In this document: positions 17,477-64,000 of the stretch, in pieces
Numbering within the stretch: the first letter of the stretch is position 1
Layout: every line of letters begins with the position of its first letter
NCBI GenBank assembly: GCA_034670405.1
Contig: JAXDDX010000224.1
Span: 372,001-436,000 of the forward strand
Source of the DNA: Hoplostethus atlanticus
Taxonomy: Eukaryota; Chordata; Actinopteri; Trachichthyiformes; Trachichthyidae
Direction of reading: 5' to 3'
Length of the DNA: 64,000 nt
The notes under the pieces: model-generated
Database searches by the model: none
Told to the model about the DNA's origin: nothing
The model's input: only the letters and a program-made list of their open reading frames with translations
Made by a program: the position numbers and the translations under genes

Positions 17477-17561
17477 ATGTCGTCTTTGCCAGGAACGGTA
17501 CCGCGGATGATGCGCCCGGCGCCCGGACAGAACTATCCCCGCACCGGCTTCCCTCTGGAAG
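17477..17561 (+). CDS. pax7: Pax7 exon 1 (coding part): N-terminal peptide
   Basis: Start codon at 17477 with a purine at -3. The 28 codons read [14 protein letters not shown]... ending [10 protein letters not shown], then one base (G) before a GTAGGC donor at 17562. This matches the N-terminus of vertebrate Pax7 (human [16 protein letters not shown]) more closely than Pax3 (TLAGAVPRMMRPGP). The exon ends in phase 1, and the next exon supplies TG to complete a valine, the normal Pax3/7 arrangement. Pax7 is a nuclear paired-domain/homeodomain transcription factor of neural crest, dorsal neural tube and muscle stem cells. This exon precedes the DNA-binding domains. The 5' UTR limit is not visible. 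Confidence 0.93.
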
Positions 17562-18448: not shown

Positions 18449-18684
18449 TGTCCACTCCTCTGGGCCAGGGCCGGGTCAACCAGCTCGGCGGAGTCTTCAT
18501 CAATGGCCGGCCCCTGCCGAACCACATCCGACACAAAATAGTGGAGATGGCCCACCACGGGATCCGACCCTGCGTCATTTCCAGACAGCTCAGAGTCTCC
18601 CACGGCTGCGTCTCCAAGATCCTCTGCCGCTACCAAGAAACTGGATCCATCCGGCCCGGAGCAATAGGAGGCAGCAAACCCAGG
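18449..18684 (+). CDS. pax7: Pax7 exon 2: N-terminal two-thirds of the paired domain
   Basis: The 236-nt exon (same length as exon 2 of mammalian Pax3) encodes residues 29-107. It starts [20 protein letters not shown] and ends GAIGGSKPR. It contains the beta-hairpin and the N-terminal PAI helix-turn-helix of the paired domain, including [18 protein letters not shown] and the recognition-helix segment [13 protein letters not shown]. These contact DNA in the minor groove and major groove. The donor is GTGAGC. The sequence is nearly invariant among vertebrate Pax3/7, so this exon alone does not separate the paralogues; the flanking exons do. The frame closes in phase 0. No damage is seen. Confidence 0.97.
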
Positions 18685-19103: not shown

Positions 19104-19106
19104 CAG
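19101..19106 (+). promoter_or_regulatory. Tandem acceptor CAGCAG (Q+/Q- paired domain)
   Basis: Two consecutive CAG triplets sit at the intron 2/exon 3 boundary. Splicing after the first gives an exon starting CAG GTA (Gln-Val); splicing after the second removes one glutamine. Q+ and Q- isoforms from such a choice are established for vertebrate Pax3 and Pax7 and alter DNA binding of the C-terminal paired subdomain. The sequence shows the choice is retained; its use cannot be seen. Confidence 0.85.
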
Positions 19107-19233
19107 GTAGCTACGCCGGACGTGGAGAAGCGGATAGAGGAGTACAAGCGAGACAACCCCGGGATGTTTAGCTGGGAGATCCGGGATAAACTGCTGAAGG
19201 ACGGGGTGTGTGACCGAAGCACAGTCCCTTCAG
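19104..19233 (+). CDS. pax7: Pax7 exon 3: C-terminal paired subdomain
   Basis: The 130-nt exon encodes residues 108-150. It starts [20 protein letters not shown] and continues [20 protein letters not shown] to VPS, then one base G before the donor GTGAGG. It forms most of the RED subdomain helix-turn-helix. The valine in DGVCDRST differs from the histidine of mammalian PAX7 (DGHCDRST), while [14 protein letters not shown] is canonical. The start is at the first of two CAG acceptors, and a second donor lies 15 bases downstream, so up to four isoforms of this exon are possible. Length equals the mammalian Pax3/7 exon. Intact. Confidence 0.96.
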
Positions 19234-19250
19234 GTGAGGCCTCCTCTGGT
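19234..19250 (+). promoter_or_regulatory. Alternative exon 3 donor adding five residues (GEASS)
   Basis: After the normal donor (GTGAGG at 19234) a second, stronger-looking donor GTAAGC begins at 19249. Using it extends exon 3 by 15 bases (19234-19248), keeps phase, and inserts Gly-Glu-Ala-Ser-Ser between VPS and VSSISRVLR. Pax7 in other vertebrates is known to vary at this junction (a Gly-Leu dipeptide in mammals, small insertions in fish), so this is likely a real isoform choice. Confidence 0.75.
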
Positions 19251-19523: not shown

Positions 19524-19652
19524 TGAGTTCAATCAGCCGTGTTCTGCGAGCTCGATTCGGGAAAAAGGACGACGAAGACGACTGTGACAAAAAAGATGAA
19601 GATGGGGAGAAAAAAACTAAACACAGCATTGACGGCATTCTCGGTGACAAAG
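19524..19652 (+). CDS. pax7: Pax7 exon 4: end of paired domain, acidic linker, octapeptide
   Basis: The 129-nt exon encodes residues 151-193. [15 protein letters not shown] closes the paired domain. It is followed by a charged linker [16 protein letters not shown] and the octapeptide HSIDGILG (residues 184-191), the Groucho/TLE-binding repressor motif. The linker composition ([17 protein letters not shown]) is Pax7-type; Pax3 has a different ERKEAEESEKK-like linker. It ends in phase 1 with a GTAGGC donor at 19653. Mammalian PAX7 can carry Gly-Leu at the start of this segment; no upstream in-frame acceptor for that is seen here. Intact. Confidence 0.96.
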
Positions 19653-30762: not shown

Positions 30763-30793
30763 CCCCCCCTCCCCCCCCCCCCCCCCCCCCCCC
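30763..30793. repeat. Poly-C tract with one interruption
   Basis: A C run of about 30 bases interrupted by a single T, followed by CA-rich sequence to about 30840. Confidence 0.9.
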
Positions 30794-41560: not shown

Positions 41561-41652
41561 GCTGGGCTCTTCCCTCTGCGCTCGCCGCTACTGACGGAAT
41601 CCTGGTTAGTTTCTTTTACTCCGCTTAGTTATATGCTTAAATTCAGCGGGTT
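41561..41652 (-). pseudogene. 28S rRNA 5'-end fragment
   Basis: Reverse complement of the 5' end of large-subunit rRNA. The minus strand reads CCCGCTGAATTTAAGCATAT, then GCGGAG, AAAGAAACTAACCAGGATTC and GGGAAGAGCCCAGC. These are invariant eukaryotic 28S words near nucleotides 25-115. A few substitutions and truncation at both ends show that it is a pseudogene copy, not an active rDNA unit. Confidence 0.92.
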
Positions 41653-42767: not shown

Positions 42768-42967
42768 GCAGTCGGATGGATGAGGGCTCAGATGTGGAGT
42801 CGGAGCCTGACCTTCCCCTGAAAAGGAAGCAGCGGAGGAGTCGAACCACCTTCACGGCAGAGCAGCTGGAAGAGCTGGAGAAGGCTTTTGAAAGAACCCA
42901 CTACCCCGACATCTACACCAGGGAGGAGCTGGCCCAGAGGACCAAACTCACTGAGGCTCGCGTCCAG
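42768..42967 (+). CDS. pax7: Pax7 exon 5: homeodomain residues 1-46
   Basis: A 200-nt exon with acceptor TCGCTCAG and donor GTAAAG, encoding residues 194-260. [20 protein letters not shown] is followed by the homeodomain start [20 protein letters not shown] and then [20 protein letters not shown] to TEARVQ. The [11 protein letters not shown] segment is Pax7-type. The exon breaks the homeodomain between positions 46 and 47, the classic paired-class intron position. Helix 3 (VWFSNRRARWR, with the serine-50 of Pax proteins) is therefore on the next exon, which is not in this window. Read-through into the intron meets a stop after V-K-I. Intact up to the donor. Confidence 0.97.
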
Positions 42968-45900
42968 GTAAAGATCTAGAAAGCTTCACTCCAAAATGCC
43001 ATACCTACCACTCCTACATAGTGAATTCTGGCTTGTTGGTGAAACTTCTATGGAATATAATTGATGTTAAAAGACATCCTAATATCTTCCGAGCAAGTAT
43101 TTGACGGACGTATTTGAAGTCTGACACCTTTAGGTTGAACAGCAACCCTAACTAGCACAAAATGTTCCATGCAGGTAGCAGCTATGGACAACTACATCTC
43201 AACTTTCATTTTGTTGCTATATTTACTCGGTGCAGGCCTATCAACATCTATTCAACGCCAAAATCTCTGCTGGCTTGCTAAGAAAATTGCAGTGCGTAAC
43301 ATCAGTTAGCAGTGCACTTTCTTCCTGAATGTTCCAACAGAAAAATGCACTTGACTATATTCTAATATGCCAAATAATGGTCATACATCCACAATGGAGA
43401 CTTGACATGAGGGGACCTTCTGAACCAATCATGTTAAAATTTGAAACTGTAGAATTTCTCATATGCACAATTTAGGGATCATCACAATCACATCAATCAA
43501 GTCTAAGTATGTCCAAAAAGACACCGAGTGAACCTTTCCCTGGAATCAGAACACGTACTATTCCCCTTCGTACAATCCTCACATTTTCAACACTTGCTTT
43601 GTGCTTTTTTGTTTTTTTAAACACCCCCGTTACATATTTACCCACTGAGTCCAACTTCTATTCACACATCCATAAAATGCTCCAGAGTCTGCCAGCTGTT
43701 TGCATCTCACCAAAGAAGGCTCTCTTTCTTCTCACTTAGGTTTTGACAGCTCCACTGTCTCCAAGTAGTGCTGCAGAAAAAATAGTGTAGAGTTATAACA
43801 ACAGCTGTTAGGTGTGCGGTGAGCGGGTGGGGGGATAAAATGAGCCTGGGTTGCATTCCTGATGGATTTCTCACTCTCCAACATTTTGGCTAGGATCTTT
43901 TCTTCCCACAACTTTCAAGCCCACCACTCCTTGTAAAATTCACTGCATATTAGAGAAGACTTCTTGGCTCTCCCTTGGGAGCTTTCAACCTAACAGCAAC
44001 TTGAATCAATCAAGGGCTAGTAAAAAAAAGGGGCAGGGAGTAAAAAAAGAACATGGCATGGAAACCAGTCCACACTATGCCACTTTACCTCTCTCCCATG
44101 CAGATGGCGCAATAATCTACCTTAACCTGACACCAGTCAACCCACATTCAGGGGAAATCAGACAATGTAAATCATCTGTCCCTCTTAGCATTCAATGTAG
44201 TTGTTGCAATGTCATTAAGAACAACCAACAGAAAGTGGGGCTGGTCAAACTACAACGACATGTGACTTCCATTATGTGCATTTATTTTATTCATAAATAA
44301 AGGACTAAAGTATGTCATGTGAAAGTCCAAGGTATTTGAACTTTCAGGCGTTTTCCCAACTGGATTTGGAAAAACTTTAAAGTCACAACAAAACAGTATT
44401 TCGATTGTAGATTGCTTCCGTAGTGCAATGTATTTTTCCATTGAAACAGTATGTTGGGGCGGGACATAATGTGGGGAGAGATGTACGTTATGATATGGAG
44501 AATTAGCTAACAAGGTGAAAAAGTAATTTTTTCATTTCATTGTGTATTTTAATTTACCAGTTGGCCCTGCAGGTGATAGATGAGAGATGAGTTTGGAAGA
44601 GCTCATTGTTATAGTTGCATTGTCAAACCAATGTAGCTGGCTATGTCCAAGAGTTACTGAGGTTTTCAAAGACATCCACGTTACTCCTAATTCATGTCTC
44701 TGATGATTAAGAGAGCTATTGTTCTGACTGAAATACGCTGGAATGATATGGTTAAATTAGCTAACTCTGATACATTAAATTAGTCCAGCCACATGAGGAA
44801 AGCGGCACTGGCAGATTATGTCAAATTTATTTGCTGCTGTTATTGTTCGTCTTATTTGCTGCTCTAATAACATCTCCATTGCATCAAAATCTAATTTTAA
44901 TTATAGGATGGAAGTAGTTATGTAGCCAAGGTAAAAGTGGGATAAAACATTTAAGGTCACATATGGTTGCACACTTACAATAACAAGTTCTGTATCTCTT
45001 ATTTCAGTTTCCATACTATTGAATAATAATAATACCTGCAGTGTGTTTTCTATTCATGCCTAATTTCAATTGAAAAGGCTTTTTTCAAAGTAACTTTCTA
45101 CACATACTCACAGAGTTGGTTTTGTGTAGTACAGAGGGCCATTTGCTGTTAACCAAGCATTTACTCTCTGCTACAATCTAAGCCAATTACACGGCGTCTC
45201 TTTTTTACAGTTGTTGCAAGTTTACAAAACGGAGCTATTAGTACAAAACCTCTGTCACAAGTATGCAAACTGGAATTAAAGCCTCAAATCTTTTCGTTGC
45301 ATGTGTCTGAAACTTGTACGTATTCACAGAACTAGAAAGCAAAGCTGCAAGTTCACGGAATGACGATATTAGTGTAAATGTTCTGCAATTAAATTGAAGA
45401 AGATTAAATTGCATATAGACTTCTTAAAAATAACCTAAACCTTTTAAAAGCGAACAACATCATTTTAGAGCTTCTTGGGATTCATATACCTGGCCTTAAG
45501 AGCAAACTTGACTGGCCTAGATTTCTCAAGTGGCAGTACATCCATCCTTGTGGTGAGTGTTAAAGTCAGCTTAAAGCAAACCCCTCAGAGTCATTGGTTT
45601 TGAGGCACCACAAAGGAATAAATGGGATTTGTGTCAATCAGTGAGTTAGAAGCAGTCGTCATGTACCAGGACCAGTGTTGAAACAGAAAGCGTTATTATT
45701 AGAATTCAAATGAATTTCTTTGAGTCTCCTTTTCTACTCCTGATAGTTATCAGGCTAATCCTCCCCCTCCACTCTCTCCCCTCCCAGCTCTTCTTTAATT
45801 AGCACCAGAGAGCGAGAGAGAGACAAAGAGGCAAAGAGAGAGATAAAGACAGACACTTTCTCTCTGGTTAGTACTTGGCACTGATCTCTAATCAGTTTTA

Positions 45901-46033
45901 CAAGGCTACAGGAGTCTGTATTACTGGCTCACCAAACTACACAAGGCAGCGGTAAACATGTCGTCCACCACCAATGATGCAGTCCCCCTCTGGCCCAATC
46001 AGAAACAAATATGTCACCTTGTTTTGATCTGGA
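42968..46033 (+). other. Pax7 intron 5, unique part before the array
   Basis: Three kilobases of mostly unique AT-rich sequence. I searched it for the next pax7 exon (VWFSNRRARW) on the plus strand and did not find it. There is a pyrimidine-rich patch (45755-45800) followed by a purine-rich GAGAGA patch (45805-45855). The tandem array begins about 180 bases after that. No repeat family was recognised. Confidence 0.75.
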
Positions 46034-47149
46034 ATTATAGTCCCATTATGATTTATGTTTTGGTTGACATCGTTTATAGCCCAGCAATTATGATTAGTGG
46101 TTTGGTTGACATATTTTATAGCCCAGCAATTATGATTAGTGGTTTGGTTCACATCTTTCTATAGTCCATTATGATTAGTGGTTTGGTTGACATCTTCCTA
46201 TAGTCCATTATGATTAGTGGTTTGGTTGACATCTTTCTATAGTCCCATTATGATTAGTGGTTTGGTTGACATCTTTCTATAGTCCCATTATGATTAGTGG
46301 TTTGGTTGACATCTTTCTATAGTCCATTATGATTAGTGGTTGACATCTTTCTATAGTCCCATTATGATTAGTGGTTTGGTTGACATCTTTCTATCATCCA
46401 TTATGATTAGTGGTTTGTTGACTTCGTTCTATAGTCCATTATGATTAGTGGTTTGTTCACATCTTTCTATAGTCCCATTATGATTAGTGGTTTGTTGGCA
46501 TCTTTCTATAGTCCATTATGATTAGTAGTTGGTTGACATCTTTCTATAGTCCATTATGATTAGTGGTTTGTTGGCATCTTTCTATAGTCCCATTATGATT
46601 AGTGGTTGACATCTTTCTATAGTCCATTATGATTAGTGGTTTGTTGGCATCTTTCTACAGTCCATTATGATTAGTGGTTGACATCTTTCTATAGTCCATT
46701 ATGATTAGTGGTTTGTTGGCATCTTTCTATAGTCCATTATGATTAGTGGTTTGTTGGCATCTTCCTATAGTCCATTATGATTAGTGGTTGACATCTTTCT
46801 ATAGTCCATTATGATTAGTGGTTGGTTGACATCTTTCTATAGTCCCATTATGATTAGTGGTTGGTTGACATCTTTCTATAGTCCATTATGATTAGTGGTT
46901 TGTTGGCATCTTTCTATAGTCCATTATGATTAGTGGTTTGTTGGCATCTTTCTATAGTCCATTATGATTAGTGGTTTGTTGGCATCTTTCTATAGTCCAT
47001 TATGATTAGTGGTTGACATCTTTCTATAGTCCATTATGGCTAGAGGTTTGTTGACATCTTTATATAGTCCATTATGATTAGTGGTTGACATCTTTCTATA
47101 GTCCATTATGATTAGTGGTTTGTTGGCATCTTTCTATAGTCCATTATGA

Positions 47150-47400
47150 TTAGTGGTTTGGTTGACATCTTTCTATAGTTCCATTATGATTAGTGGTTTG
47201 TTGACATCTTTTTATAGTCCCAATACGATTAGTGGTTGATTGACATCTTTCTATAGTCCCATTATGATTAGTGGTTGGTTGACATCTTTCTATAGTCCCA
47301 TTATGAATAGTGGTTTGTTGGCATCTTTATATAGTCCATTATGATTAGTGGTTGACATCTTTCTATAGTCCATTATAATTAGTGGTTTGTTGGCATCTTT
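47150..47400 (+). repeat. Higher-order block related to 49881-50131
   Basis: A run of distinctive units ('ctatagttccattatg', 'catctttttat', 'cattatgaatagtgg', 'ctttatatagtcc') recurs in the same order about 2731 bp downstream, with more differences than the right-hand blocks. A marker 'ttatggctagagg' also lies before each copy. This suggests an older duplication. Confidence 0.65.
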
Positions 47401-50400
47401 CTATAGTCCATTATGATTAGTGGTTTGTTGGCATATTTCTATAGTCCATTATGATTAGTGGTTCACATCTTTCTATAGTCCATTATGATTAGTGGTTTGT
47501 TGGCATCTTTCATTATGATTAGTGGTTTGTTGGCATCTTTCTATAGTCCATTATGATTAGTGGTTCGTTGACATCTTTCTATAGTCCATTATGATTAGTG
47601 GTTTGTTGACATCTTTCTATAGTCCATTATGAATAGTGGTTTGTTGGCATCTTTCTGTAGTCCCATTTTGATTAGTGGTTGACATCTTTCTATAGTCCAT
47701 TATGATTAGTGGTTTGTTGGCATCTTTCTTTAGTCCATTATGATTAGTGGTTGACATCTTTCTATAGTCCATTATGATTAGTGGTTTGTTGGCATCTTTC
47801 TATAGTCCATTATGATTAGTGGTTGACATCTTTCTATAGTCCATTATGAGTAGTGGTTTGTTGGCATCTTTTTATAGTCCATTATGATTAGTGGTTCACA
47901 TCTTTCTATAGTCCATTATGATTAGTGGTTTGTTGGCATCTTTCATTATGATTAGTGGTTTGTTGGCATCTTACTATAGTCCATTATGATTAGTGGTTCG
48001 TTGACATCTTTCTATAGTCCATTATGATTAGTGGTTTGTTCACATCTTTCTATAGTCCCATTATGATTAGTGGTTGATTGACATCTTTCTATTGTCCCAT
48101 TATGATTAGTGGTTTGTTCACATCTTTCTATAGTCCCATTATGATTAGTGGTTTGTTGGCATCTTTCTATAGTCCATTATGATTAGTGGTTCACTTCTTT
48201 CTATAGTCCATTATGATTAGTGGTTTGTTGGCATCTTTCATTATGATTAGTGGTTTGTTGGCATCTTTCTATAGTCCATTATGATTAGTGGTTCGTTGAC
48301 ATCTTTCTATAGTCCATTATGATTAGTGGTTTGTTGGCATCTTTCTATAGTCCATTATGATTAGTGGTTGACATCTTTCTATAGTCCATTATGATTAGTG
48401 GTTTGTTCACATCTTTCTATAGTCCCATTATGATTAGTGGTTTGTTGGCATCTTTCTATAGTCCATTATGATTAGTGGTTCACATCTTTCTGTAGTCCAT
48501 TATGATTAGTGGTTTGTTGGCATCTTTCTATAGTCCATTATGATTAGTGGTTTGTTGGCATCTTTCTATAGTCCATTATGATTAGTGGTTTGTTGGCATC
48601 TTTCTATAGTCCATTATGATTAGTGGTTTGTTGGCATCGTCCATTATGATTAGTGGTTTGTTGGCATCTTTCTATAGTCCATTATGATTAGTGGTTGGTT
48701 GACATCTTTCTATAGTCCATTATGATTAGTGGTTTGTTCACATCTTTCTATAGTCCCATTATGATTAGTGGTTGGTTGACATCTTTCTATAGTCCCATTA
48801 TGATTAGTGGTTGACATCTTTCTATAGTCCATTATGATTAGTGGTTTGTTGGCATCTTTCTATAGTCCATTATGATTAGTGGTTGACATCTTTCTATAGT
48901 CCATTATGATTAGTGGTTTGTTCACATCTTTCTATAGTCCCATTATGATTAGTGGTTTGTTGGCATCTTTCTATAGTCCATTATGATTAGTGGTTCACAT
49001 CTTTCTATAGTCCATTATGATTAGTGGTTTGTTGGCATCTTTCTATAGTCCATTATGATTAGTGGTTTGTTGGCATCTTTCTATAGTCCATTATGATTAG
49101 TGGTTGGCATCTTTCTATAGTCCATTATGATTAGTGGTTTGTTCACATCTTTCTATAGTCCAATTATGATTAGTGGTTGGTTGACATCTTTCTATAGTCC
49201 ATTATGATTAGTGGTTTGTTCACATCTTTCTATAGTCCCATTATGATTAGTGGTTTGTTGGCATCTTTCTATAGTCCATTATGATTAGTGGTTGGCATCT
49301 TTCTATAGTCCATTATGATTAGTGGTTTGTTGACATCTTTCTATAGTCCATTATGATTAGTGGTTTGTTAGCATCTTTCTATAGTCCCATTATGATTAGT
49401 GGTTTGTTGGCATCTTTCTATAGTCCCATTATGATTAGTGGTTTGTTGGCATCTTTCTATAGTCCATTATGATTAGTGGTTGACATCTTTCTATATTCCA
49501 TTATGATTAGTGGTTTGTTGGCATCTCTTTATAGTCCATTATGATTAGTGGTTGACATCTTTCTATAGTCCATTATGATTAGTCGTTTGTTCACATCTTT
49601 CTATAGTACCATTATGATTAGTGGTTTGTTGGCATCTTTCTATAGTCCATTATGATTAGTGGTTCACATCTTTCTATAGTCCATTATGATTAGTGGTTGG
49701 TTGACATCTTTCTATAGTCCATTATGATTAGTGGTTGGTTGACATCTTTCTGTAGTGCCATTATGGCTAGAGGTTTGTTGACATCTTTCTATAGTCCATT
49801 GTGATTAGTGGTTGGTTGACATCTTTCTATAGTCCATTATGATTAGTGGTTTGTTGACATCTTTCTATAGTCCATTATGATTAGTGGTTTGGTTGACATC
49901 TTTCTATAGTTCCATTATGATTAGTGGTTTGTTGACATCTTTTTATCGTCCCATTATGATTAGTGGTAGGTTGACATCTTTCTATAGTCCCATTATGATT
50001 AGTGGTTGGTTGACATCTTTCTATAGTCCCATTATGATTAGTGGTTGGTTGACATCTTTCTATAGTCCCATTATGAATAGTGGTTTGTTGGCATCTTTAT
50101 ATAGTCCATTATGATATGTGGTTGACATCTTTCTATAGTCCATTATGATTAGTGATTTGTTGGCATCTTTCTATAGTCCATTATGATTAGTGGTTTGTTG
50201 GCATCTTTTTATAGTCCATTATGATTAGTGGTTCACATCTTTCTATAGTCCATTATGATTAGTGGTTTGTTGGCATCTTTCATTATGATTAGTGGTTTGT
50301 TGGCATCTTTCTATAGTCCATTATGATTAGTGGTTGACATCTTTCTATAGTCCATTATGAGTAGTGGTTTGTTCACATCTTTCTATAGTACCATTATGAT

Positions 50401-51036
50401 TAGTGGTTTGTTGGCATCTTTCATTATGATTAGTGGTTTGTTGACATCTTTCTATAGTCCATTATGTTTAGTGGTTTGTTGGCATCTTTCTATAGTCCAT
50501 TATGATTAGTGGTTGACATCTTTCTATAGTCCATTATGAGTAGTGGTTTGTTCACATCTTTCTATAGTACCATTATGATTAGTGGTTTGTTGGCATCTTT
50601 CTATAGTCCATTATGATTAGTGGTTCACATCTTTCTATAGTCCATTATGATTAGTGGTTTGTTGGCATCTTTCTATAGTCCATTATGATTAGTGGTTTGT
50701 TGGCATCTTTCTATAGTCCATTATGATTAGTGGTTTGTTGGCATCTTTCTATAGTCCATTATGATTAGTGGTTGACATCTTTCTATAGTCCATTATGATT
50801 AGTGGTTTGTTCACATCTTTCTATAGTCCCATTATGATTAGTGGTTGGTTGACATCTTTCTATAGTCCCATTATGATTAGTGGTTTGTTCACATCTTTCT
50901 ATAGTCCCATTATGATTAGTGGTTGGTTGACATCTTTCTATAGTCCATTATGATTAGTGGTTTGTTCACATCTTTCTATAGTCCCATTATGATTAGTGGT
51001 TTGTTGGCATCTTTCTATAGTCCATTATGATTAGTG

Positions 51037-51711
51037 GTTGACATCTTTCTATAGTCCATTATGATTAGTGGTTTGTTCACATCTTTCTATAGTCCCATTA
51101 TGATTAGTGGTTTGTTGGCATCTTTCTATAGTCCATTATGATTAGTGGTTGGCATCTTTCTATAGTCCATTATGATTAGTGGTTTGTTGGCATCTTTCTA
51201 TAGTCCATTATGATTAGTGGTTGACATCTTTCTATAGTCCATTATGATTAGTGGTTTGTTGGCATCTCTCTATAGTCCATTATGATTAGTGGTTGACATC
51301 TTTCTATAGTCCATTATGATTAGTGGTTTGTTCACATCTTTCTATAGTCCCATTATGATTAGTGGTTTGTTGGCATCTTTCTATAGTCCATTATGATTAG
51401 TGGTTCACATCTTTCTTTAGTCCATTATGATTAGTGGTTGGTTGACATCTTTCTATAGTCCCATTATGAATAGTGGTTTGTTGGCATCTTTATATAGTCC
51501 ATTATGATTAGTGGTCGACATCTTTCTATAGTCCATTATGATTAGTGGTTTGTTGGCATCTTTCTATAGTCCATTATGATTAGTGGTTTGTTGGCATCTT
51601 TCTATAGTCCATTATGATTAGTGGTTCACATCTTTCTATAGTCCATTATGATTAGTGGTTTGTTGGCATCTTTCATTATGATTAGTGGTTTGTTGGCATC
51701 TTTCTATAGTC
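51037..51711 (+). repeat. Higher-order block, duplicated 1440 bp downstream (52477-53151)
   Basis: Within the array, about 675 bases here match 52477-53151 at an exact 1440-bp offset with only two differences found by eye. They share rare variants such as 'cattatgaatagtgg', 'tttatatagtcc' and 'gtggtcgacatc'. Sequence on either side stops matching in register. Confidence 0.85.
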
Positions 51712-54700
51712 CCATTATGAGTAGTGGTTGGTTGACATCTTTCTATAGTCCATTATGTTTAGTGGTTTGTTGGCATCTTCTATAGTCCATTATGATTAGT
51801 GGTTGACATCTTTCTATAGTCCATTATGAGTAGTGGTTTGTTCACATCTTTCTATAGTACCATTATGATTAGTGGTTTGTTGGCATCTTTCTATAGTCCA
51901 TTATGATTAGTGGTTCACATCTTTCTATAGTCCATTATGATTAGTGGTTTGTTGGCATCTTTCTATAGTCCATTATGATTAGTGGTTTGTTGGCATCTTT
52001 CTATAGTCCATTATGATTAGTGGTTGACATCTTTCTATAGTCCATTATGATTAGTGGTTTGTTCACATCTTTCTATAGTCCCATTATGATTAGTGGTTGG
52101 TTGACATCTTTCTATAATCCCATTATGATTAGTGGTTTGTTCACATCTTTCTATAGTCCCATTATGATTAGTGGTTGGTTGACATCTTTCTATAGTCCAT
52201 TATGATTAGTGGTTTGTTCACATCTTTCTATAGTCCCATTATGATTAGTGGTTTGTTGGCATCTTTCTATAGTCCATTATGATTAGTGGTTGACATCTTT
52301 CTATAGTCCATTATGATTAGTGGTTTGTTGACATCTTTCTATAGTCCATTATGATTAGTGGTTTGTTGGCATTTTTCTATAGTCCCATTATGATTAGTGG
52401 TTGACATCTTTCTATAGTCCATTATGATTAGTGGTTTGTTCACATCTTTCTATAGTCCCATTATGATTAGTGGTTGGTTGACATCTTTCTATAGTCCATT
52501 ATGATTAGTGGTTTGTTCACATCTTTCTATAGTCCCATTATGATTAGTGGTTTGTTGGCATCTTTCTATAGTCCATTATGATTAGTGGTTGGCATCTTTC
52601 TATAGTCCATTATGATTAGTGGTTTGTTGACATCTTTCTATAGTCCATTATGATTAGTGGTTGACATCTTTCTATAGTCCATTATGATTAGTGGTTTGTT
52701 GGCATCTCTCTATAGTCCATTATGATTAGTGGTTGACATCTTTCTATAGTCCATTATGATTAGTGGTTTGTTCACATCTTTCTATAGTCCCATTATGATT
52801 AGTGGTTTGTTGGCATCTTTCTATAGTCCATTATGATTAGTGATTCACATCTTTCTTTAGTCCATTATGATTAGTGGTTGGTTGACATCTTTCTATAGTC
52901 CCATTATGAATAGTGGTTTGTTGGCATCTTTATATAGTCCATTATGATTAGTGGTCGACATCTTTCTATAGTCCATTATGATTAGTGGTTTGTTGGCATC
53001 TTTCTATAGTCCATTATGATTAGTGGTTTGTTGGCATCTTTCTATAGTCCATTATGATTAGTGGTTCACATCTTTCTATAGTCCATTATGATTAGTGGTT
53101 TGTTGGCATCTTTCATTATGATTAGTGGTTTGTTGGCATCTTTCTATAGTCCATTATGATTAGAGGTTTGTTGACATCTTTCTATAGTCCATTATGATTA
53201 GTGGTTTGTTCACATCTTTCTATAGTCCCATTATGAGTAGTGGTTGGTTGACATCTTTCTATAGTCCATTATGATTAGTGGTTTGTTCACATCTTTCTAT
53301 AGTCCATTATGATTAGTGGTTGGCATCTTTCTATAGTACATTATGATTAGTGGTTTGTTGACATCTTTCTATAGTCCATTATGATTAGTGGTTTGTTGGC
53401 ATCTTTCTATAGTCCCATTATGATTAGTGGTTTGTTGGCATCTTTCTATAGTCCATTATGATTAGTGGTTGACATCTTTCTATAGTCCATTATGATTAGT
53501 GGTTTGTTGGCATCTTTCTATAGTCCATTATGATTAGTGGTTCACATCTTTCTATAGTCCATTATGAGTAGTGGTTTGTTCACATCTTTCTATAGTACCA
53601 TTATGATTAGTGGTTTGTTGGCATCTTTCTATAGTCCATTATGATTAGTGGTTCACATCTTTCTATAGTCCATTATGATTAGTGGTTTGTTGGCATCTTG
53701 CTATAGTCCATTATGATTAGTGGTTTGTTGGCATCTTTCTATAGTCCATTATGATTAGTGGTTTGTTGGCATCTTTCTATAGTCCATTATGATTAGTGGT
53801 TTGTTCACATCTTTCTATAGTCCCATTATGATTAGTGGTTTGTTGGGATCTTTCTATAGTCCATTATGATTAGTGGTTGACATCTTTCTATAGTCCATTA
53901 TGATTAGTGGTTTGTTCACATCTTTCTATAGTCCCATTATGATTAGTGGTTGGTTGACATCTTTCTATAGTCCATTATGATTAGTGGTTTGTTCACATCT
54001 TTCTATAGTCCCATTATGATTAGTGGTTTGTTGGCATCTTTCTATAGTCCATTATGATTAGTGGTTTGTTCACATCTTTCTATAGTCCCATTATGATTAG
54101 TGGTTGGTTGACATCTTTCTATAGTCCATTATGATTAGTGGTTTGTTCACATCTTTCTATAGTCCCATTATGATTAGTGGTTTGTTGGCATCTTTCTATA
54201 GTCCATTATTAGTGGTTGACATCTTTCTATAGTCCATTATGATTAGAGGTTTGTTGGCATCTTTCTATAGTCCATTATGATTAGTGGTTGACATCTTTCT
54301 ATAGTCCATTATGATTAGTGGTTTGTTCACATCTTTCTATAGCCCCATTATGATTAGTGGTTTGTTGGCATCTTTCTATAGTCCATTATGATTAGTGGTT
54401 CACATCTTTCTATAGTCCATTATGATTAGTGGTTTGTTGGCATCTTTCTATAGTCCATTATGATTAGTGGTTTGTTGGAATCTTTCTATAGTCCATTATG
54501 ATTAGTGGTTCGTTGACATCTTTCTATAGTCCATTATGATTAGTGGTTTGTTCACATCTTTCTATAGTCCCATTATGATTAGTGGTTGGTTGACATCTTT
54601 CTATAGTCCATTATGATTAGTTGTTTGTTGGCATCTTTCTATAGTCCCATTATGATTAGTGGTTTGTTGGCATCATTCTATAGTCCATTATGATTAGTGG

Positions 54701-57700
54701 TTGACATCTTTCTATAGTCCATTATGAGTAGTGGTTTGTTCACATCTTTCTATAGTCCCATTATGATTAGTGGTTTGTTGGCATCTTTCTATAGTCCATT
54801 ATGATTAGTGGTTCACATCTTTCTATAGTCCATTATGATTAGTGGTTTGTTGGCATCTTTCTATAGTCCATTATGATTAGTGGTTTGTTGGCATCTTTCT
54901 ATAGTCCATTATGATTAGTGGTTCGTTGACATCTTTCTATAGTCCATTGTGATTTGTGGTTTGTTCACATCTTTCTATAGTCCCATTATGATTAGTGGTT
55001 TGTTGGCATCTTTTTATAGTCCATTATGATTAGTGGTTCGTTGACATCTTTCTATAGTCCATTATGATTAGTGGTTTGTTGGCATCTTTCTATAGTCCAT
55101 TATCATTAGTGGTTCACATCTTTCTATAGTCCATTATGATTAGTGGTTTGTTGGCATCTTTCATTATGTTTAGTGGTTTTTTGGCATCTTTCTATAGTCC
55201 ATTATGATTAGTGGTTCGTTGACATCTTTCTATAGTCCATTATGATTAGTGGTTTGTTCACATCTTTCTATAGTCCCATTATGATTAGTGGTTGGTTGAC
55301 ATCTTTCTATTGTCCCATTATGATTAGTGGTTTGTTCACATCTTTCTATAGTCCCATTATGATTAGTGGTTGGTTGACATCTTTCTATAGTCCATTATGA
55401 GTAGTGGTTTGTTCACATCTTTCTATAGTCCCATTATGATTAGTGGTTTGTTGGCATCTTTCTATAGTCCATTATGATTAGTGGTTCACATCTTTCTATA
55501 GTCCATTATGATTAGTGGTTTGTTGGCATCTTTCTATAGTCCATTATGATTAGTGGTTTGTTGGCATCTTTCTATAGTCCATTTTGATTAGTGGTTCGTT
55601 GACATCTTTCTATAGTCCATTGTGATTAGTGGTTTGTTCACATCTTTCTATAGTCCCATTATGATTAGTGGTTGGTTGACATCTTTCTATTGTCCCATTA
55701 TGATTAGTGGTTTTTTGGCATCTTTCTATAGTCCATTATGATTAGTGGTTCGTTGACATCTTTCTATAGTCCATTATGATTAGTGGTTTGTTCACATCTT
55801 TCTATAGTCCCATTATGATTAGTGGTTGGTTGACATCTTTCTATAGTCCCATTATGATTAGTGGTTTGTTGGCATCTTTCTATAGTCCATTATGATTAGT
55901 GGTTCACATCTTTCTATAGTCCATTATGATTAGTGGTTTGTTGGCATCTTTCTATAGTCCATTATGATTAGTGGTTTGTTGGCATCTTTCTATAGTCCAT
56001 TTTGATTAGTGGTTCGTTGACATCTTTCTATAGTCCATTGTGATTAGTGGTTTGTTCACATCTTTCTATAGTCCCATTATGATTAGTGGTTTGTTGGCAT
56101 CTTTCTATAGTCCATTATGATTAGTGGTTTGTTGGCATCTTTCTATAGTCCATTTTGATTAGTGGTTCACATCTTTCTATAGTCCATTATGATTAGTGGT
56201 TTGTTGGCATCTTTCATTATGTTTAGTGGTTTTTTGGCATCTTTCTATAGTCCATTATGATTAGTGGTTCGTTGACATCTTTCTATAGTCCATTATGATT
56301 AGTGGTTTGTTCACATCTTTCTATAGTCCCATTATGATTAGTGGTTGGTTGACATCTTTCTATTGTCCCATTATGATTAGTGGTTTGTTCACATCTTTCT
56401 ATAGTCCCATTATGATTAGTGGTTGGTTGACATCTTTCTATAGTCCATTATGATTAGTGGTTTGTTCACATCTTTCTATAGTCCCATTATGATTAGTGGT
56501 TTGTTGGCATCTGTCTATAGTCCATTATGATTAGTGGTTGGCATCTTTCTATAGTCCATTATGATTAGTGGTTTGTTGACATCTTTCTATAGTCCATTAT
56601 GATTAGTGGTTTGTTGGCATCTTTCTATAGTCCCATTATGATTTGTGGTTTGTTGGCATCTTTCTATAGTCCATTATGATTAGTGGTTTGTTGGCATCTT
56701 TCTATAGTCCCATTATGATTTGTGGTTTGTTGGCATCTTTCTATAGTCCCATTATGATTATTGGTTGGTTGACATCTTTCTATATTCCATTATGATTAGT
56801 GGTTTGTTCACATCTTTCTATAGTCCCATTATGATTAGTGGTTGGCATCTTTCTATAGTCCATTATGATTAGTGGTTTGTTGACATCTTTCTATAGTCCA
56901 TTATGATTAGTGGTTTGTTGGCATCTATCTATAGTCCCATTATGATTTGTGGTTTGTTGGCATCTTTCTATAGTCCATTATGATTAGTGGTTGACATCTT
57001 TCTATAGTCCATTATGATTAGTGGTTTGTTGGCATCTTTCTATAGTCCATTATGATTAGTGGTTGACATCTTTCTATAGTCCATTATGATTAGTGGTTTG
57101 TTCACATCTTTCTATAGCCCCATTATGATTAGTGGTTTGTTGGCATTTTTCTATAGTCCATTATGATTAGTGGTTCACATCTTTCTATAGTCCATTATGA
57201 TTAGTGGTTCGTTGACATCTTTCTATAGTCCATTATGATTAGTGGTTTGTTCACATCTTTCTATAGTCCCATTATGATTAGTGATTGGTTGACATCTTTC
57301 TATAGTCCATTATGATTAGTTGTTTGTTGGCATCTTTCTATAGTCCCATTATGATTAGTGGTTGACATCTTTCTATAGTCCATTATGATTAGTGGTTTGT
57401 TGGCATCTTGCTATAGTCCATTATGATTAGTGGTTGACATCTTTCTATAGTCCATTATGAGTAGTGGTTTGTTCACATCTTTCTATAGTCCATTATGATT
57501 AGTGGTTCACATCTTTCTATAGTCCATTATGATTAGTGGTTTGTTGGCATCTTTCTATAGTCCATTATGATTAGTGGTTCGTTGACATCTTTCTATAGTC
57601 CATTGTGATTAGTGGTTTGTTCACATCTTTCTATAGTCCCATTATGATTAGTGGTTTGTTGGCATCTTCTATAGTCCATTATGATTAGTGGTTCGTTGAC

Positions 57701-59319
57701 ATCTTTCTATAGTCCATTATGATTAGTGGTTTGTTGGCATCTTTCTATAGTCCATTATGATTAGTGGTTCACATCTTTCTATAGTCCATTATGATTAGTG
57801 GTTTGTTGGCATCTTTCTATAGTCCATTATGATTAGTGGTTCACATCTTTCTATAGTCCATTATGATTAGTGGTTTGTTGGCATCTCTCATTATGTTTAG
57901 TGGTTTGTTGGCATCTTTCTATAGTCCATTATGATTAGTGGTTTGTTCACATCTTTCTATAGTCCCATTATGATTAGTGGTTGGATGACATCTTTCTATT
58001 GTCCCATTATGATTAGTGGTTTGTTCACATCTTTCTATAGTCCCATTATGATTAGTGGTTGGTTGACATCTTTCTATAGTCCCATTATGATTAGTGGTTG
58101 GTTGACATCTTTCTATAGTCCATTATGATTAGTGGTTGACATCTTTCTATAGTCCATTATGATTAGAGGTTTGTTGGCATCTTTCTATAGTCCATTATGA
58201 TTAGTGGTTGACATCTTTCTATAGTCCATTATGATTAGTGGTTTGTTCACATCTTTCTATAGCCCCATTATGATTAGTGGTTTGTTGGCATCTTTCTATA
58301 GTCCCATTATGATTAGTGGTTTGTTGGCATCATTCTATAGTCCATTATGATTAGTGGTTGACATCTTTCTATAGTCCATTATGAGTAGTGGTTTGTTCAC
58401 ATCTTTCTATAGTCCCATTATGATTAGTGGTTTGTTGGCATCTTTCTATAGTCCATTATGATTAGTGGTTCACATCTTTCTATAGTCCATTATGATTAGT
58501 GGTTTGTTGGCATCTTTCTATAGTCCATTATGATTAGTGGTTTGTTGGCATCTTTCTATAGTCCATTATGATTAGTGGTTCGTTGACATCTTTCTATAGT
58601 CCATTGTGATTTGTGGTTTGTTCACATCTTTCTATAGTCCCATTATGATTAGTGGTTTGTTGGCATCTTTTTATAGTCCATTATGATTAGTGGTTCGTTG
58701 ACATCTTTCTATAGTCCATTATGATTAGTGGTTTGTTGGCATCTTTCTATAGTCCATTATGATTAGTGGTTTGTTCACATCTTTCTATAGTCCCATTATG
58801 ATTAGTGGTTGGTTGACATCTTTCTATAGTCCATTATGAGTAGTGGTTTGTTCACATCTTTCTATAGTCCCATTATGATTAGTGGTTTGTTGGCATCTTT
58901 CTATAGTCCATTATGATTAGTGGTTCACATCTTTCTATAGTCCATTATGATTAGTGGTTTGTTGGCATCTTTCTATAGTCCATTATGATTAGTGGTTTGT
59001 TGGCATCTTTCTATAGTCCATTTTGATTAGTGGTTCGTTGACATCTTTCTATAGTCCATTGTGATTAGTGGTTTGTTTACATCTTTCTATAGTCCCATTA
59101 TGATTAGTGGTTTGTTGGCATCTTTCTATAGTCCATTATGATTAGTGGTTTGTTGGCATCTTTCTATAGTCCATTATGATTAATGGTTTGTTCACATCTT
59201 TCTATAGTCCCATTATGATTAGTGGTTGGTTGACATCTTTCTATTGTCCCATTATGATTAGTGGTTTGTTCACATCTTTCTATAGTCCCATTATGATTAG
59301 TGGTTGGTTGACATCTTTC

Positions 59320-60538
59320 TATAGTCCATTATGATTAGTGGTTCACATCTTTCTATAGTCCATTATGATTAGTGGTTTGTTGGCATCTTTCTATAGTCCA
59401 TTATGATTAGTGGTTTGTTGGCATCTTTCTATAGTCCATTTTGATTAGTGGTTCGTTGACATCTTTCTATAGTCCATTGTGATTAGTGGTTAGTTCACAT
59501 CTTTCTATAGTCCCATTATGATTAGTGGTTTGTTGGCATCTTTCTATAGTCCATTATGATTAGTGGTTTGTTGGCATCTTTCTATAGTCCATTATGATTA
59601 GTGGTTCACATCTTTCTATAGTCCATTATGATTAGTGGTTTGTTGGCATCTTTCATTATGTTTAGTGGTTTTTTGGCATCTTTCTATAGTCCATTATGAT
59701 TAGTGGTTCGTTGACATCTTTCTATAGTCCATTATGATTAGTGGTTTGTTCACATCTTTCTATAGTCCCATTATGATTAGTGGTTGGTTGACATCTTTCT
59801 ATTGTCCCATTATGATTAGTGGTTTGTTCACATCTTTCTATAGTCCCATTATGATTAGTGGTTGGTTGACATCTTTCTATAGTCCATTATGATTAGTGGT
59901 TTGTTCACATCTTTCTATAGTCCCATTATGATTAGTGGTTTGTTGGCATCTGTCTATAGTCCATTATGATTAGTGGTTGGCATCTTTCTATAGTCCATTA
60001 TGATTAGTGGTTTGTTGACATCTTTCTATAGTCCATTATGATTAGTCGTTTGTTGGCATCTTTCTATAGTCCCATTATGATTTGTGGTTTGTTGGCATCT
60101 TTCTATAGTCCATTATGATTAGTGGTTTGTTGGCATCTTTCTATAGTCCCATTATGATTTGTGGTTTGTTGGCATCTTTCTATAGTCCCATTATGATTAT
60201 TGGTTGGTTGACATCTTTCTATATTCCATTATGATTAGTGGTTTGTTCACATCTTTCTATAGTCCCATTATGATTAGTGGTTGGCATCTTTCTATAGTCC
60301 ATTATGATTAGTGGTTTGTTGACATCTTTCTATAGTCCATTATGATTAGTGGTTTGTTGGCATCTATGTATAGTCCCATTATGATTTGTGGTTTGTTGGC
60401 ATCTTTCTATAGTCCATTATGATTAGTGGTTGACATCTTTCTATAGTCCATTATGATTAGTGGTTTGTTGGCATCTTTCTATAGTCCATTATGATTAGTG
60501 GTTGACATCTTTCTATAGTCCATTATGATTAGTGGTTT
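59320..60538 (+). repeat. Higher-order block, duplicated 1377 bp downstream (60697-61915)
   Basis: About 1.2 kb recurs at an exact 1377-bp offset, tracked by rare markers. 'tttcattatgtttagtgg' is at 59651 and 61028, 'gattattggttgg' at 60195 and 61572, and 'catctatgtatagtcc' at 60361 and 61738. An older third copy with some of the same markers lies 3439 bp to the left (markers at 56212 and 56756). Confidence 0.85.
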
Positions 60539-63500
60539 GTTGGCATCTTTCATTATGTTTAGTGGTTTTTTGGCATCTTTCTATAGTCCATTATGATTAG
60601 TGGTTCGTTGACATCTTTCTATAGTCCATTATGATTAGTGGTTTGTTCACATCTTTCTATAGTCCCATTATGATTAGTGGTTTGTTGGCATCTTTCTATA
60701 GTCCATTATGATTAGTGGTTCACATCTTTCTATAGTCCATTATGATTAGTGGTTTGTTGGCATCTTTCTATAGTCCATTATGATTAGTGGTTTGTTGGCA
60801 TCTTTCTATAGTCCATTTTGATTAGTGGTTCGTTGACATCTTTCTATAGTCCATTGTGATTAGTGGTTAGTTCACATCTTTCTATAGTCCCATTATGATT
60901 AGTGGTTTGTTGGCATCTTTCTATAGTCCATTATGATTAGTGGTTTGTTGGCATCTTTCTATAGTCCATTATGATTAGTGGTTCACATCTTTCTATAGTC
61001 CATTATGATTAGTGGTTTGTTGGCATCTTTCATTATGTTTAGTGGTTTTTTGGCATCTTTCTATAGTCCATTATGATTAGTGGTTCGTTGACATCTTTCT
61101 ATAGTCCATTATGATTAGTGGTTTGTTCACATCTTTCTATAGTCCCATTATGATTAGTGGTTGGTTGACATCTTTCTATTGTCCCATTATGATTAGTGGT
61201 TTGTTCACATCTTTCTATAGTCCCATTATGATTAGTGGTTGGTTGACATCTTTCTATAGTCCATTATGATTAGTGGTTTGTTCACATCTTTCTATAGTCC
61301 CATTATGATTAGTGGTTTGTTGGCATCTGTCTATAGTCCATTATGATTAGTGGTTGGCATCTTTCTATAGTCCATTATGATTAGTGGTTTGTTGACATCT
61401 TTCTATAGTCCATTATGATTAGTGGTTTGTTGGCATCTTTCTATAGTCCCATTATGATTTGTGGTTTGTTGGCATCTTTCTATAGTCCATTATGATTAGT
61501 GGTTTGTTGGCATCTTTCTATAGTCCCATTATGATTTGTGGTTTGTTGGCATCTTTCTATAGTCCCATTATGATTATTGGTTGGTTGACATCTTTCTATA
61601 TTCCATTATGATTAGTGGTTTGTTCACATCTTTCTATAGTCCCATTATGATTAGTGGTTGGCATCTTTCTATAGTCCATTATGATTAGTGGTTTGTTGAC
61701 ATCTTTCTATAGTCCATTATGATTAGTGGTTTGTTGGCATCTATGTATAGTCCCATTATGATTTGTGGTTTGTTGGCATCTTTCTATAGTCCATTATGAT
61801 TAGTGGTTGACATCTTTCTATAGTCCATTATGATTAGTGGTTTGTTGGCATCTTTCTATAGTCCATTATGATTAGTGGTTGACATCTTTCTATAGTCCAT
61901 TATGATTAGTGGTTTGTTCACTTCTTTCTATAGCCCCATTATGATTAGTGGTTTGTTGGCATTTTTCTATAGTCCATTATGATTAGTGGTTCACATCTTT
62001 CTATAGTCCATTATGATTAGTGGTTCGTTGACATCTTTCTATAGTCCATTATGATTAGTGGTTTGTTCACATCTTTCTATAGTCCCATTATGATTAGTGA
62101 TTGGTTGACATCTTTCAATAGTCCATTATGATTAGTTGTTTGTTGGCATCTTTCTATAGTCCCATTATGATTAGTGGTTGACATCTTTCTATAGTCCATT
62201 ATGATTAGTGGTTTGTTGGCATCTTGCTATAGTCCATTATGATTAGTGGTTGACATCTTTCTATAGTCCATTATGAGTAGTGGTTTGTTCACATCTTTCT
62301 ATAGTCCATTATGATTAGTGGTTCACATCTTTCTATAGTCCCATTATGATTAGTGGTTTGTTGGCATCTTTCTATAGTCCATTATGATTAGTGGTTCGTT
62401 GACATCTTTCTATAGTCCATTATGATTAGTGGTTTGTTGGCATCTTTCTATAGTCCATTATGATTAGTGGTTCACATCTTTCTATAGTCCATTATGATTA
62501 GTGGTTTGTTGGCATCTTTCTATAGTCCATTATGATTAGTGGTTCACATCTTTCTATAGTCCATTATTATTAGTGGTTTGTTGGCATCTCTCATTATGTT
62601 TAGTGGTTTGTTGGCATCTTTCTATAGTCCATTATGATTAGTGGTTTGTTCACATCTTTCTATAGTCCCATTATGATTAGTGGTTGGATGACATCTTTCT
62701 ATTGTCCCATTATGATTAGTGGTTTGTTCACATCTTTCTATAGTCCCATTATGATTAGTGGTTTGTTGGCATCTTTTTATAGTCCATTATGATTAGTGGT
62801 TCGTTGACATCTTTCTATAGTCCATTATGATTAGTGGTTTGTTGGCATCTTTCTATAGTCCATTATCATTAGTGGTTCACATCTTTCTATAGTCCATTAT
62901 GATTAGTGGTTTGTTGGCATCTTTCATTATGTTTAGTGGTTTTTTGGCATCTTTCTATAGTCCATTATGATTAGTGGTTTGTTCACATCTTTCTATAGTC
63001 CCATTATGATTAGTGGTTGGTTGACATCTTTCTATAGTCCATTATGAGTAGTGGTTTGTTCACATCTTTCTATAGTCCCATTATGATTAGTGGTTTGTTG
63101 GCATCTTTCTATAGTCCATTATGATTAGTGGTTCACATCTTTCTATAGTCCATTATGATTAGTGGTTTGTTGGCATCTTTCTATAGTCCATTATGATTAG
63201 TGGTTTGTTGGCATCTTTCTATAGTCCATTTTGATTAGTGGTTCGTTGACATCTTTCTATAGTCCATTGTGATTAGTGGTTTGTTTACATCTTTCTATAG
63301 TCCCATTATGATTAGTGGTTTGTTGGCATCTTTCTATAGTCCATTATGATTAGTGGTTTGTTGGCATCTTTCTATAGTCCATTATGATTAGTGGTTTGTT
63401 CACATCTTTCTATAGTCCCATTATGATTAGTGGTTGGTTGACATCTTTCTATTGTCCCATTATGATTAGTGGTTTGTTCACATCTTTCTATAGTCCCATT

Positions 63501-64000
63501 ATGATTAGTGGTTGGTTGACATCTTTCTATAGTCCATTATGAGTAGTGGTTTGTTCACATCTTTCTATAGTCCCATTATGATTAGTGGTTTGTTGGCATC
63601 TTTCTATAGTCCATTATGATTAGTGGTTCACATCTTTCTATAGTCCATTATGATTAGTGGTTTGTTGGCATCTTTCTATAGTCCATTATGATTAGTGGTT
63701 TGTTGGCATCTTTCTATAGTCCATTTTGATTAGTGGTTCGTTGACATCTTTCTATAGTCCATTGTGATTAGTGGTTAGTTCACATCTTTCTATAGTCCCA
63801 TTATGATTAGTGGTTTGTTGGCATCTTTCTATAGTCCATTATGATTAGTGGTTTGTTGGCATCTTTCTATAGTCCATTATGATTAGTGGTTCACATCTTT
63901 CTATAGTCCATTATGATTAGTGGTTTGTTGGCATCTTTCATTATGTTTAGTGGTTTTTTGGCATCTTTCTATAGTCCATTATGATTAGTGGTTCGTTGAC

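What the first reader, a model, noticed from the sequence alone, without database searches (positions are those of the whole stretch)
46034..64000. An 18-kb-plus minisatellite inside the Pax7 intron that splits the homeodomain
The array begins 3.07 kb after the exon for homeodomain residues 1-46 and reaches the window edge without the next exon. All full-length Pax7 mRNA must therefore be transcribed through and spliced across at least 18 kb of tandem 34-39 bp units. Long minisatellites in introns of dosage-sensitive developmental regulators are unusual. Array length could affect transcription time, splicing efficiency or chromatin of the locus. The array and its position are seen; the consequences are inference.
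Basis: partly seen in the sequence, partly recalled or inferred. Interest (0 to 1): 0.85.

Follow-up and report, generated by a model that had tools for sequence, protein, structure and literature searches.

The report
Giant repeat array in pax7 intron
In this fish, a short repeat carried by a scattered genomic element has grown to about 800 copies inside one intron of the muscle stem-cell gene pax7, stretching that intron to 38 kb; it is a striking case of a known process, and whether it affects the gene is untested.

Summary
The array starts at 46,034, fills the window and runs on to about 76,197 in the same contig without N: 30.2 kb, 809 counted units. Intron 5 is 37.8 kb; without the array 7.6 kb, close to the 6.8 kb of the second pax7 gene.

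What changes is the origin. The unit is not pax7-specific: 41 other places (45-3,436 bp) were listed. Two shared arms flank part of them, and the pax7 array keeps the right arm. It is most likely the internal minisatellite of an old dispersed, probably mobile, element, expanded in place. The pax7 array holds 664 of the genome's 1,263 exact copies of a 17-mer core and 243 of 243 copies of a private 27-mer.

I judge it mainly tolerated expansion that lengthens transcription; effects on pax7 dosage or splicing are untested. Precedents: Tetris, CACNA1C TRACT, ABCA7 VNTR.

The parts
17477..17561 (+). pax7 exon 1, coding part (from ATG)
   Evidence: exons 1-5 join into one open frame
18449..18684 (+). 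pax7 exon 2 (paired domain)
   Evidence: PF00292 E=9.4e-48 on the frame holding it; frame
19104..19248 (+). pax7 exon 3 (paired domain); alternative donors after 19233 and 19248
   Evidence: PF00292 E=1.8e-18; donor scores 6.93 and 5.22
19524..19652 (+). pax7 exon 4 (octapeptide HSIDGILG; motif name recalled)
   Evidence: frame and splice sites
42768..42967 (+). pax7 exon 5, homeodomain positions 1-46, donor CAG|GTAAAG
   Evidence: PF00046 E=4.3e-16; Pax-3 homeodomain 3cmy E=6.1e-23
42968..64000 (+). part of pax7 intron 5 inside the window; the intron continues to 80,736 in window-continued coordinates (C224:452736)
   Evidence: exon 6 at C224:452737; length 37,769 bp
46034..46160 (+). left edge of the array: first units, diverged from the later consensus; no left arm of the element detected in the 600 bp before
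   Evidence: sequence; nhmmer without hit
46034..64000 (+). tandem array, 38/39/34/30-bp units, window part; continues to about 76,197 in window-continued coordinates, followed by the element's right arm at 76,271-76,446
   Evidence: TRF; unit counts; right arm E=1.4e-32

Best explanation
An old dispersed element that carries a few tandem units of about 38-44 bp between a left arm and a right arm lay in the intron between pax7 exons 5 and 6. Its internal minisatellite then grew in place to about 809 units (30.2 kb), by duplication of units and of blocks up to about 1.9 kb, as expected from unequal exchange or replication slippage. The pre-mRNA is transcribed through it and exon 5 is spliced to exon 6. 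The array is most likely tolerated: its RNA strand has no AATAAA or ATTAAA and no good 5' splice site by a simple matrix, so it offers little for premature polyadenylation or exon definition. Its most likely physical effect is a longer transcription time. Shown: the array, both exons, the dispersed family, the right arm beside the array, the private variants, the block duplications. Inferred: that the element was mobile, that it was there before the growth, the mechanism of growth, and the absence of a large effect on pax7.
For: Array and exon 6 on one contig without N. 41 other places with the repeat, 45-3,436 bp. Left-arm and right-arm searches list 40 and 41 matches; four left-right pairs stand 62-132 bp apart on one strand, and C173:118930-119311 reads left arm, repeat, right arm. 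Right arm at 76,271-76,446, E=1.4e-32 with a profile not built from it. 27-mer variant 243 of 243 genome copies in this array; 17-mer core 664 of 1,263. Exact internal duplications up to 1,874 bp; 72% of the array in exact repeats of 200 bp or more. Intron without the array 7,605 bp against 6,820 bp in the pax7 paralog. No poly(A) hexamer, no donor of score 4 or more.
Against: The left arm is not detectable at pax7. 28 of 41 other places have neither arm within 200 bp among the listed matches, and 8 of the 20 fetched loci show no clear arm. No terminal inverted repeats were found and target-site duplications were not examined, so mobility is not shown. The array has no perfect run longer than 3 units, so growth by single-unit slippage alone is not visible. 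427 of 1,543 AG sites score as acceptors at least as high as the real exon 4 site and 20 at least as high as that of exon 5, so decoy use cannot be excluded. No RNA, chromatin or population data.
Confidence: 0.72

Rival explanations
1. The array modulates pax7 output: its length slows or lowers full-length mRNA production, by transcription time, by silent chromatin, or by competition of its many weak acceptor-like sites with exon 6, and its length differs between individuals.
For: Intron 5 is about five times the length it would have without the array. 799 AG sites score 0 or more as acceptors; acceptor-like sites of exon 4's score or better are 14.2 per kb against 4.3 per kb in neighbouring intron sequence. 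Human intronic VNTRs show such associations: longer CACNA1C alleles go with lower expression in fibroblasts and testis (abstract, PMC13131567) and ABCA7 VNTR length with exon 19 skipping and lower expression (abstract, PMC5954066).
Against: The acceptor-like motif is part of the unit genome-wide, not a pax7 feature, and dinucleotide shuffles of the window part give nearly as many sites (about 22 against 27 per kb at score 0 or more). Exon 6's acceptor (8.25) exceeds the array maximum (6.75). No donor of score 4 or more. No expression data.
Confidence: 0.15
2. Assembly artefact: the array is misjoined to pax7, or its length is wrong.
For: Long arrays are error-prone in assemblies; exact duplications up to 1,874 bp exist inside; no reads were available.
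Against: Both sides join pax7 sequence in one contig without N, with exons 1-6 and later pax7 exon sequences in order. The private 27-mer occurs nowhere else in the assembly (243 of 243). No exact duplication exceeds 1.9 kb, so reads of several kb could place most units.
Confidence: 0.07
3. Homeodomain sink: the two ATTA cores per unit bind Pax7 or other homeodomain proteins and form an autoregulatory sponge in the gene's own intron.
For: 1,510 ATTA on the + strand of the array, 700 as ATTA-NN-ATTA; 901 in the window part against 127 expected from neighbouring intron density.
Against: All copies derive from one unit, so the count is one observation, and the same core is in family arrays elsewhere. 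The palindromic TAAT-N2/N3-ATTA spacing preferred by Pax3/7 dimers (recalled) occurs 2 and 1 times. In mouse cells PAX3 and PAX9 were not stably bound at satellite heterochromatin (passages, PMC4299515).
Confidence: 0.04
4. Recursive splicing: the array holds ratchet sites that remove the long intron stepwise.
For: Long vertebrate introns may use such sites (recalled).
Against: 0 matches to YAGGTRAG and only 8 AGGT in 30 kb.
Confidence: 0.02

Closest known systems
Tetris / TIR-220 of Drosophila virilis (PMC4079207; abstract and one section read)
   Same: Tandem repeats already present inside a dispersed transposon amplified within a copy into long arrays, disrupting the element.
   Different: Tetris is a foldback element with 220-bp repeats in its terminal inverted repeats, amplified in beta-heterochromatin; here the unit is about 38 bp, no inverted repeats were found and the copy is in an intron of a developmental gene.
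TRACT, the 30-bp VNTR in an intron of human CACNA1C (PMC13131567; abstract and two sections read)
   Same: Intronic array of about 30-40-bp units, 3-30+ kb, many unit variants; block duplication has been suggested for its growth.
   Different: TRACT has perfect tracts (up to 26 units in some alleles) and known length alleles; here the longest identical run is 3 units and variation between individuals is unknown. Element origin is seen here; I did not examine it for TRACT.
ABCA7 intronic VNTR (PMC5954066; abstract read; PMC6857246, passages)
   Same: Intronic minisatellite of several kb to about 10 kb in expanded alleles.
   Different: 25-bp GC-rich unit; length correlates with exon skipping and expression there, untested here.
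MITE- and other element-derived satellites, e.g. Xstir, miDNA4, pearl-related HindIII and BIV160 (review PMC9659126; passages)
   Same: A satellite or minisatellite that originated in a dispersed element.
   Different: Membership of this element in a MITE or pearl family is not shown.
Satellite-filled introns of Drosophila Y genes kl-3 and kl-5 (PMC6508621, PMC11207136; abstracts)
   Same: Tandem repeats inside introns that are transcribed and spliced out.
   Different: Megabases of simple satellite, germline expression with dedicated RNA-binding proteins; here 30 kb in one intron.

Membership tests
pax7 gene | Paired domain | tested here: met
   PF00292 on exons 2 and 3
pax7 gene | Paired-type homeodomain split by an intron after position 46/47, continued by VWFSNRRARW | tested here: met
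   PF00046 positions 1-46; exon 6 45 of 45 residues identical to a Pax7 peptide typed from recall, other loci 98, 80 and 80%
pax7 gene | Pax7 rather than Pax3 | tested here: met
   By exon 6 identity to the recalled Pax7 peptide and two residues recalled as Pax7-type (K, T) that differ from the Pax-3 chain 3cmy; no tree was built
Minisatellite | Head-to-tail units of about 10-100 bp | tested here: met
   period 38; 809 anchors
VNTR | Length differs between individuals | not testable with these tools
   one assembly only
Element-internal repeat expanded in place (Tetris-like process) | Repeat lies between conserved arms in other genomic copies | tested here: met
   C173:118930-119311; four left-right pairs 62-132 bp apart
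Element-internal repeat expanded in place (Tetris-like process) | The long array is flanked by the element's own arms | tested here: inconclusive
   right arm present, E=1.4e-32; left arm not detected
Element-internal repeat expanded in place (Tetris-like process) | Array-private variants, showing local growth | tested here: met
   243 of 243 copies of a 27-mer; two more unit motifs absent from 16 other arrays compared
MITE | Terminal inverted repeats | tested here: not met
   no convincing inverted match between 600 bp before and 900 bp after the arrays of 20 loci; element ends not mapped
MITE | Target-site duplications | not tested
   element ends not mapped
Expression- or splicing-modifying intronic VNTR (TRACT, ABCA7) | RNA level or isoforms change with array length | not testable with these tools
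   no RNA data
Recursive-splicing intron | YAG|GTRAG ratchet sites in the array | tested here: not met
   0 in 30,164 bp

The most novel reading that the evidence does not exclude
A dispersed element's internal repeat has expanded into a 30-kb, probably length-variable timer in pax7 intron 5 that tunes how much full-length Pax7 is made in muscle and neural-crest progenitors, and so links repeat length to growth variation in this fish.
Probability: 0.1. Interest if true: 0.8.

Novelty: new member of a known kind. Interest (0 to 1): 0.45.

Why it matters
It shows how large a burst of tandem growth a key transcription-factor gene can carry: one intron is about five times the length it would have without the array, and over half of this genome's exact copies of the unit core (664 of 1,263) sit in one gene. 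The two pax7 paralogs, one with a 37.8-kb and one with a 6.8-kb intron at the same place, form a natural comparison for testing whether intron repeat length alters transcription timing or dosage. The family, from one or two units to 809, also lets one ask what makes one copy grow while others stay small.

Tried and rejected
Pax7-specific origin of the unit: rejected, the family is dispersed. Upstream relatives of the unit in the first 46 kb of the window: only short weak matches (best E 1.2). Recursive splicing: no ratchet sites. Hairpin structure: one 301-nt stretch, 55000-55300, folds no better than shuffles (z -0.24 as RNA of the + strand, 1.47 as DNA of the - strand). Known RNA gene or tRNA in the array: none at Rfam's gathering threshold or by ARAGORN; the only Rfam match is an rRNA fragment at 41,571-41,650. 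Terminal inverted repeats: none convincing. The unit in the prokaryotic and viral collections: 0 exact matches, as expected for a fish repeat. Print: the 15-mer CATTATGATTAGTGG is in no paper of the library. 'pax7' with 'minisatellite' gave 8 papers; I looked at passages of one, where the word is in a reference title about myomaker, and at passages of a trout pax7 paper with no occurrence of 'repeat' (PMC4469688). The other papers of these listings I saw as titles and abstract starts only, except those named in the report. Within those searches I found no report of this array.

Limits. The genome DNA search scores only its best candidates; one search says that more matches are not listed, and neither nor one search listed the pax7 array itself, so the list of 41 other places is a lower bound and longer arrays could be missed there. 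The pattern counts are whole, but exact: a long array of a diverged subfamily without the core would escape them, and the assembly may have lost other long arrays. The 41 places were merged by hand and include fragments of one or two units (45, 70, 72 bp). Of the 41 rows, one search used 40 (a 43-base second piece at C39 was dropped). Of 20 fetched loci, one search compared 16; four with fewer than 4 units were dropped. The right-arm profile was built from 8 loci and the left-arm profile from 7; these match by construction, together 12 of the 20 loci. Beyond them the right profile gave weak hits in L030 (E 1.7e-05) and L034 (0.019) and a second one in L025 (0.059), and the left profile one in L023 (6.4e-13) 3.4 kb before its array. 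The right-arm query was composed with the pax7 arm in view, so only one search is independent. Splice controls are window 19653-42767 plus 42969-46033. Intron lengths of paralogs rest on the ends of protein matches. The genome tool says this genome has no relatives here, so no orthologous intron was compared.
Full report
The window is G000:C224:372001-436000 of an unnamed 633-Mb genome in 1,161 contigs. It carries the 5' part of a pax7 gene on the + strand. Exons 1-5 join into one open frame from [14 protein letters not shown] to TEARVQ. The paired domain (PF00292) and homeodomain positions 1-46 (PF00046) are recognised. Exon 5 ends at 42,967 with the donor CAG|GTAAAG. By the exon 5 and exon 6 searches the genome holds two pax7-type genes (C224, C39) and two pax3-like genes (C25, C227), the number usual in teleosts (recalled); the labels rest on identity to a recalled peptide, not on a tree.

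The array is real. Tandem Repeats Finder gives 46036-64000, period 38, 482.8 copies. I find 483 anchors in the window, 102 distinct units, largest anchor spacing 42 bp so no inserted foreign DNA, and no inverted unit. I fetched the next 60 kb of the contig. The array runs on without N to about 76,197 in window-continued coordinates: 30,164 bp, 809 anchors, largest spacing 59, 130 distinct units, longest run of identical units 3. Exon 6 starts at 80,737 after the acceptor TTCCCTCTCTTTCTACAG, and sequences of later pax7 exons follow near 82.3, 102.9 and 110.1 kb. Intron 5 is 37,769 bp, 80% of it array. The remaining 7,605 bp is close to the 6,820 bp of the same intron in the C39 paralog; the two pax3-like genes have 705 and 599 bp (from the places).

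The unit is not a pax7 invention. Searches of the genome with array sequence match many contigs. Merged by hand they make 41 other places of 45 to 3,436 bp, so the pax7 array is about nine times the next listed; the lists are capped. I fetched 20 of these loci. Several share sequence on one side or the other. Two arms emerged: a left arm of about 130 bp and a right arm of at least 240 bp. Searched on their own they list 40 and 41 matches. Four left-right pairs stand on one strand 62-132 bp apart, room for one to three units, and C173:118930-119311 reads left arm, repeat, right arm. Of the 41 other places 6 have the left arm and 8 the right arm within 200 bp in the expected order, one of them both; 28 have neither among the listed matches. 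Of the 20 fetched loci 12 show an arm (these built the profiles) and 8 show none clearly. No right arm stood on the opposite strand within 2 kb of an array; one 45-bp fragment lies downstream of a right arm.

The pax7 array keeps the right arm. A profile built from 8 other loci finds it at 76,271-76,446, 73 bp after the array, E=1.4e-32, in the expected orientation. The DNA search lists it too, C224:448270-448446, 82% identity, though that query was composed with the pax7 arm in view. The left arm is not detectable in the 600 bp before the array. I read this as an old element whose internal minisatellite grew at this place while the left arm was lost or overrun. That the element was mobile is an inference from its dispersal; no terminal inverted repeats were found.

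Growth was local. The 27-mer CATTATGATTAGTGGTTTGTTGGCATC occurs 243 times in the genome, and 243 times in the pax7 array. The 17-mer core CATTATGATTAGTGGTT occurs 1,263 times on both strands, 664 of them here, so the assembly has no second array with this core of comparable size. The unit motif GTTTGTTCACATC and the junction of the 30-bp short unit are absent from 16 other arrays compared. Inside the array exact duplications reach 1,874 bp at 6,034 bp spacing, and 72% of it lies in exact repeats of at least 200 bp; this is 0 in the first 2 kb and 0.37 in the last full 2-kb bin. That is the pattern of block duplication with older edges.

What could it do? The RNA strand is 46% T and 20% A. There is no AATAAA or ATTAAA on either strand. 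On the + strand 20 shuffles of the window part also give no AATAAA, so this is composition; on the - strand they give about 67. Of 3,058 GT sites none scores 4 or more as donor, maximum 3.3, while the six tested pax7 donors, the alternative one of exon 3 included, score 4.15-6.93; three shuffles of the window part give 2, 8 and 10 such sites and 26 kb of neighbouring intron gives 14. Of 1,543 AG sites 799 score 0 or more as acceptors, 427 reach exon 4's score (1.9) and 20 reach exon 5's (4.52); exon 2's real acceptor scores only -1.0, and exon 6's 8.25 exceeds the array maximum of 6.75. So the array offers many weak decoy acceptors without donors: I expect little exon definition, but decoy use is not excluded. 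CpG is nearly absent, 58 against 852 expected. The 1,510 ATTA cores are copies of one unit that family arrays carry elsewhere too, so they give no evidence for a homeodomain sink. At polymerase rates of 2-4 kb per minute (recalled) the array would add about 8-15 minutes to each transcript; this is inference.

Compared with what is known: the process matches Tetris of Drosophila virilis, where internal repeats of a dispersed element amplified in place (abstract and one section read, PMC4079207). A review lists related cases, including MITEs of Xenopus and pearl elements of bivalves (passages, PMC9659126). Size and setting match the 3-30+ kb VNTR of CACNA1C (abstract and two sections, PMC13131567) and, smaller, the ABCA7 VNTR, whose length goes with exon 19 skipping (abstract, PMC5954066; passages, PMC6857246). 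Satellite-filled introns can be transcribed and spliced, as in Drosophila Y genes (abstracts, PMC6508621 and PMC11207136). So this is a new and large member of a known kind, in an unexpected gene. Function is open.

Noticed in passing
window 41571-41650 (-): An 80-bp piece matching the 5' end of eukaryotic 28S rRNA (RF02543 positions 24-103, E=5.1e-18) lies in pax7 intron 4, in reverse orientation. Its genome copy number was asked twice and not answered.
   Followed up: partly
window 19233-19248 and 42768-42779: Exon 3 has two donors 15 bp apart (GEASS) and exon 5 begins with GSRM where trout pax7 has the GNRT indel; the trout paper reports alternative splicing of 15 bp (GEASS) and 12 bp (GNRT).
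   Followed up: partly
L016 and L015 (C5 and C39 arrays): Coding-like sequence lies within a few hundred bases before these arrays, on the opposite strand: [28 protein letters not shown] and CNQPWNTEHCVEDTYRKNKTLWLAANITNFTSPVTEFW, which I recognise from recall as kainate-type glutamate receptor and SLC6-type transporter; other family arrays may thus also sit in introns.
   Followed up: partly
L018 (C79 array) and C13:4822417-4823989: Unit length differs between family arrays: 43-44 bp in L018 and about 43-bp spacing of the core on C13, against 38 bp in most others, suggesting subfamilies.
   Followed up: no
C224:474243-474314 (-), beyond the window (about 102,243 in window-continued coordinates): A 72-bp fragment of the same repeat in reverse orientation lies further downstream within the pax7 gene.
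   Followed up: no
window 30763-30793: A run of 31 bases, mostly C (93% matches), lies in pax7 intron 4.
   Followed up: no
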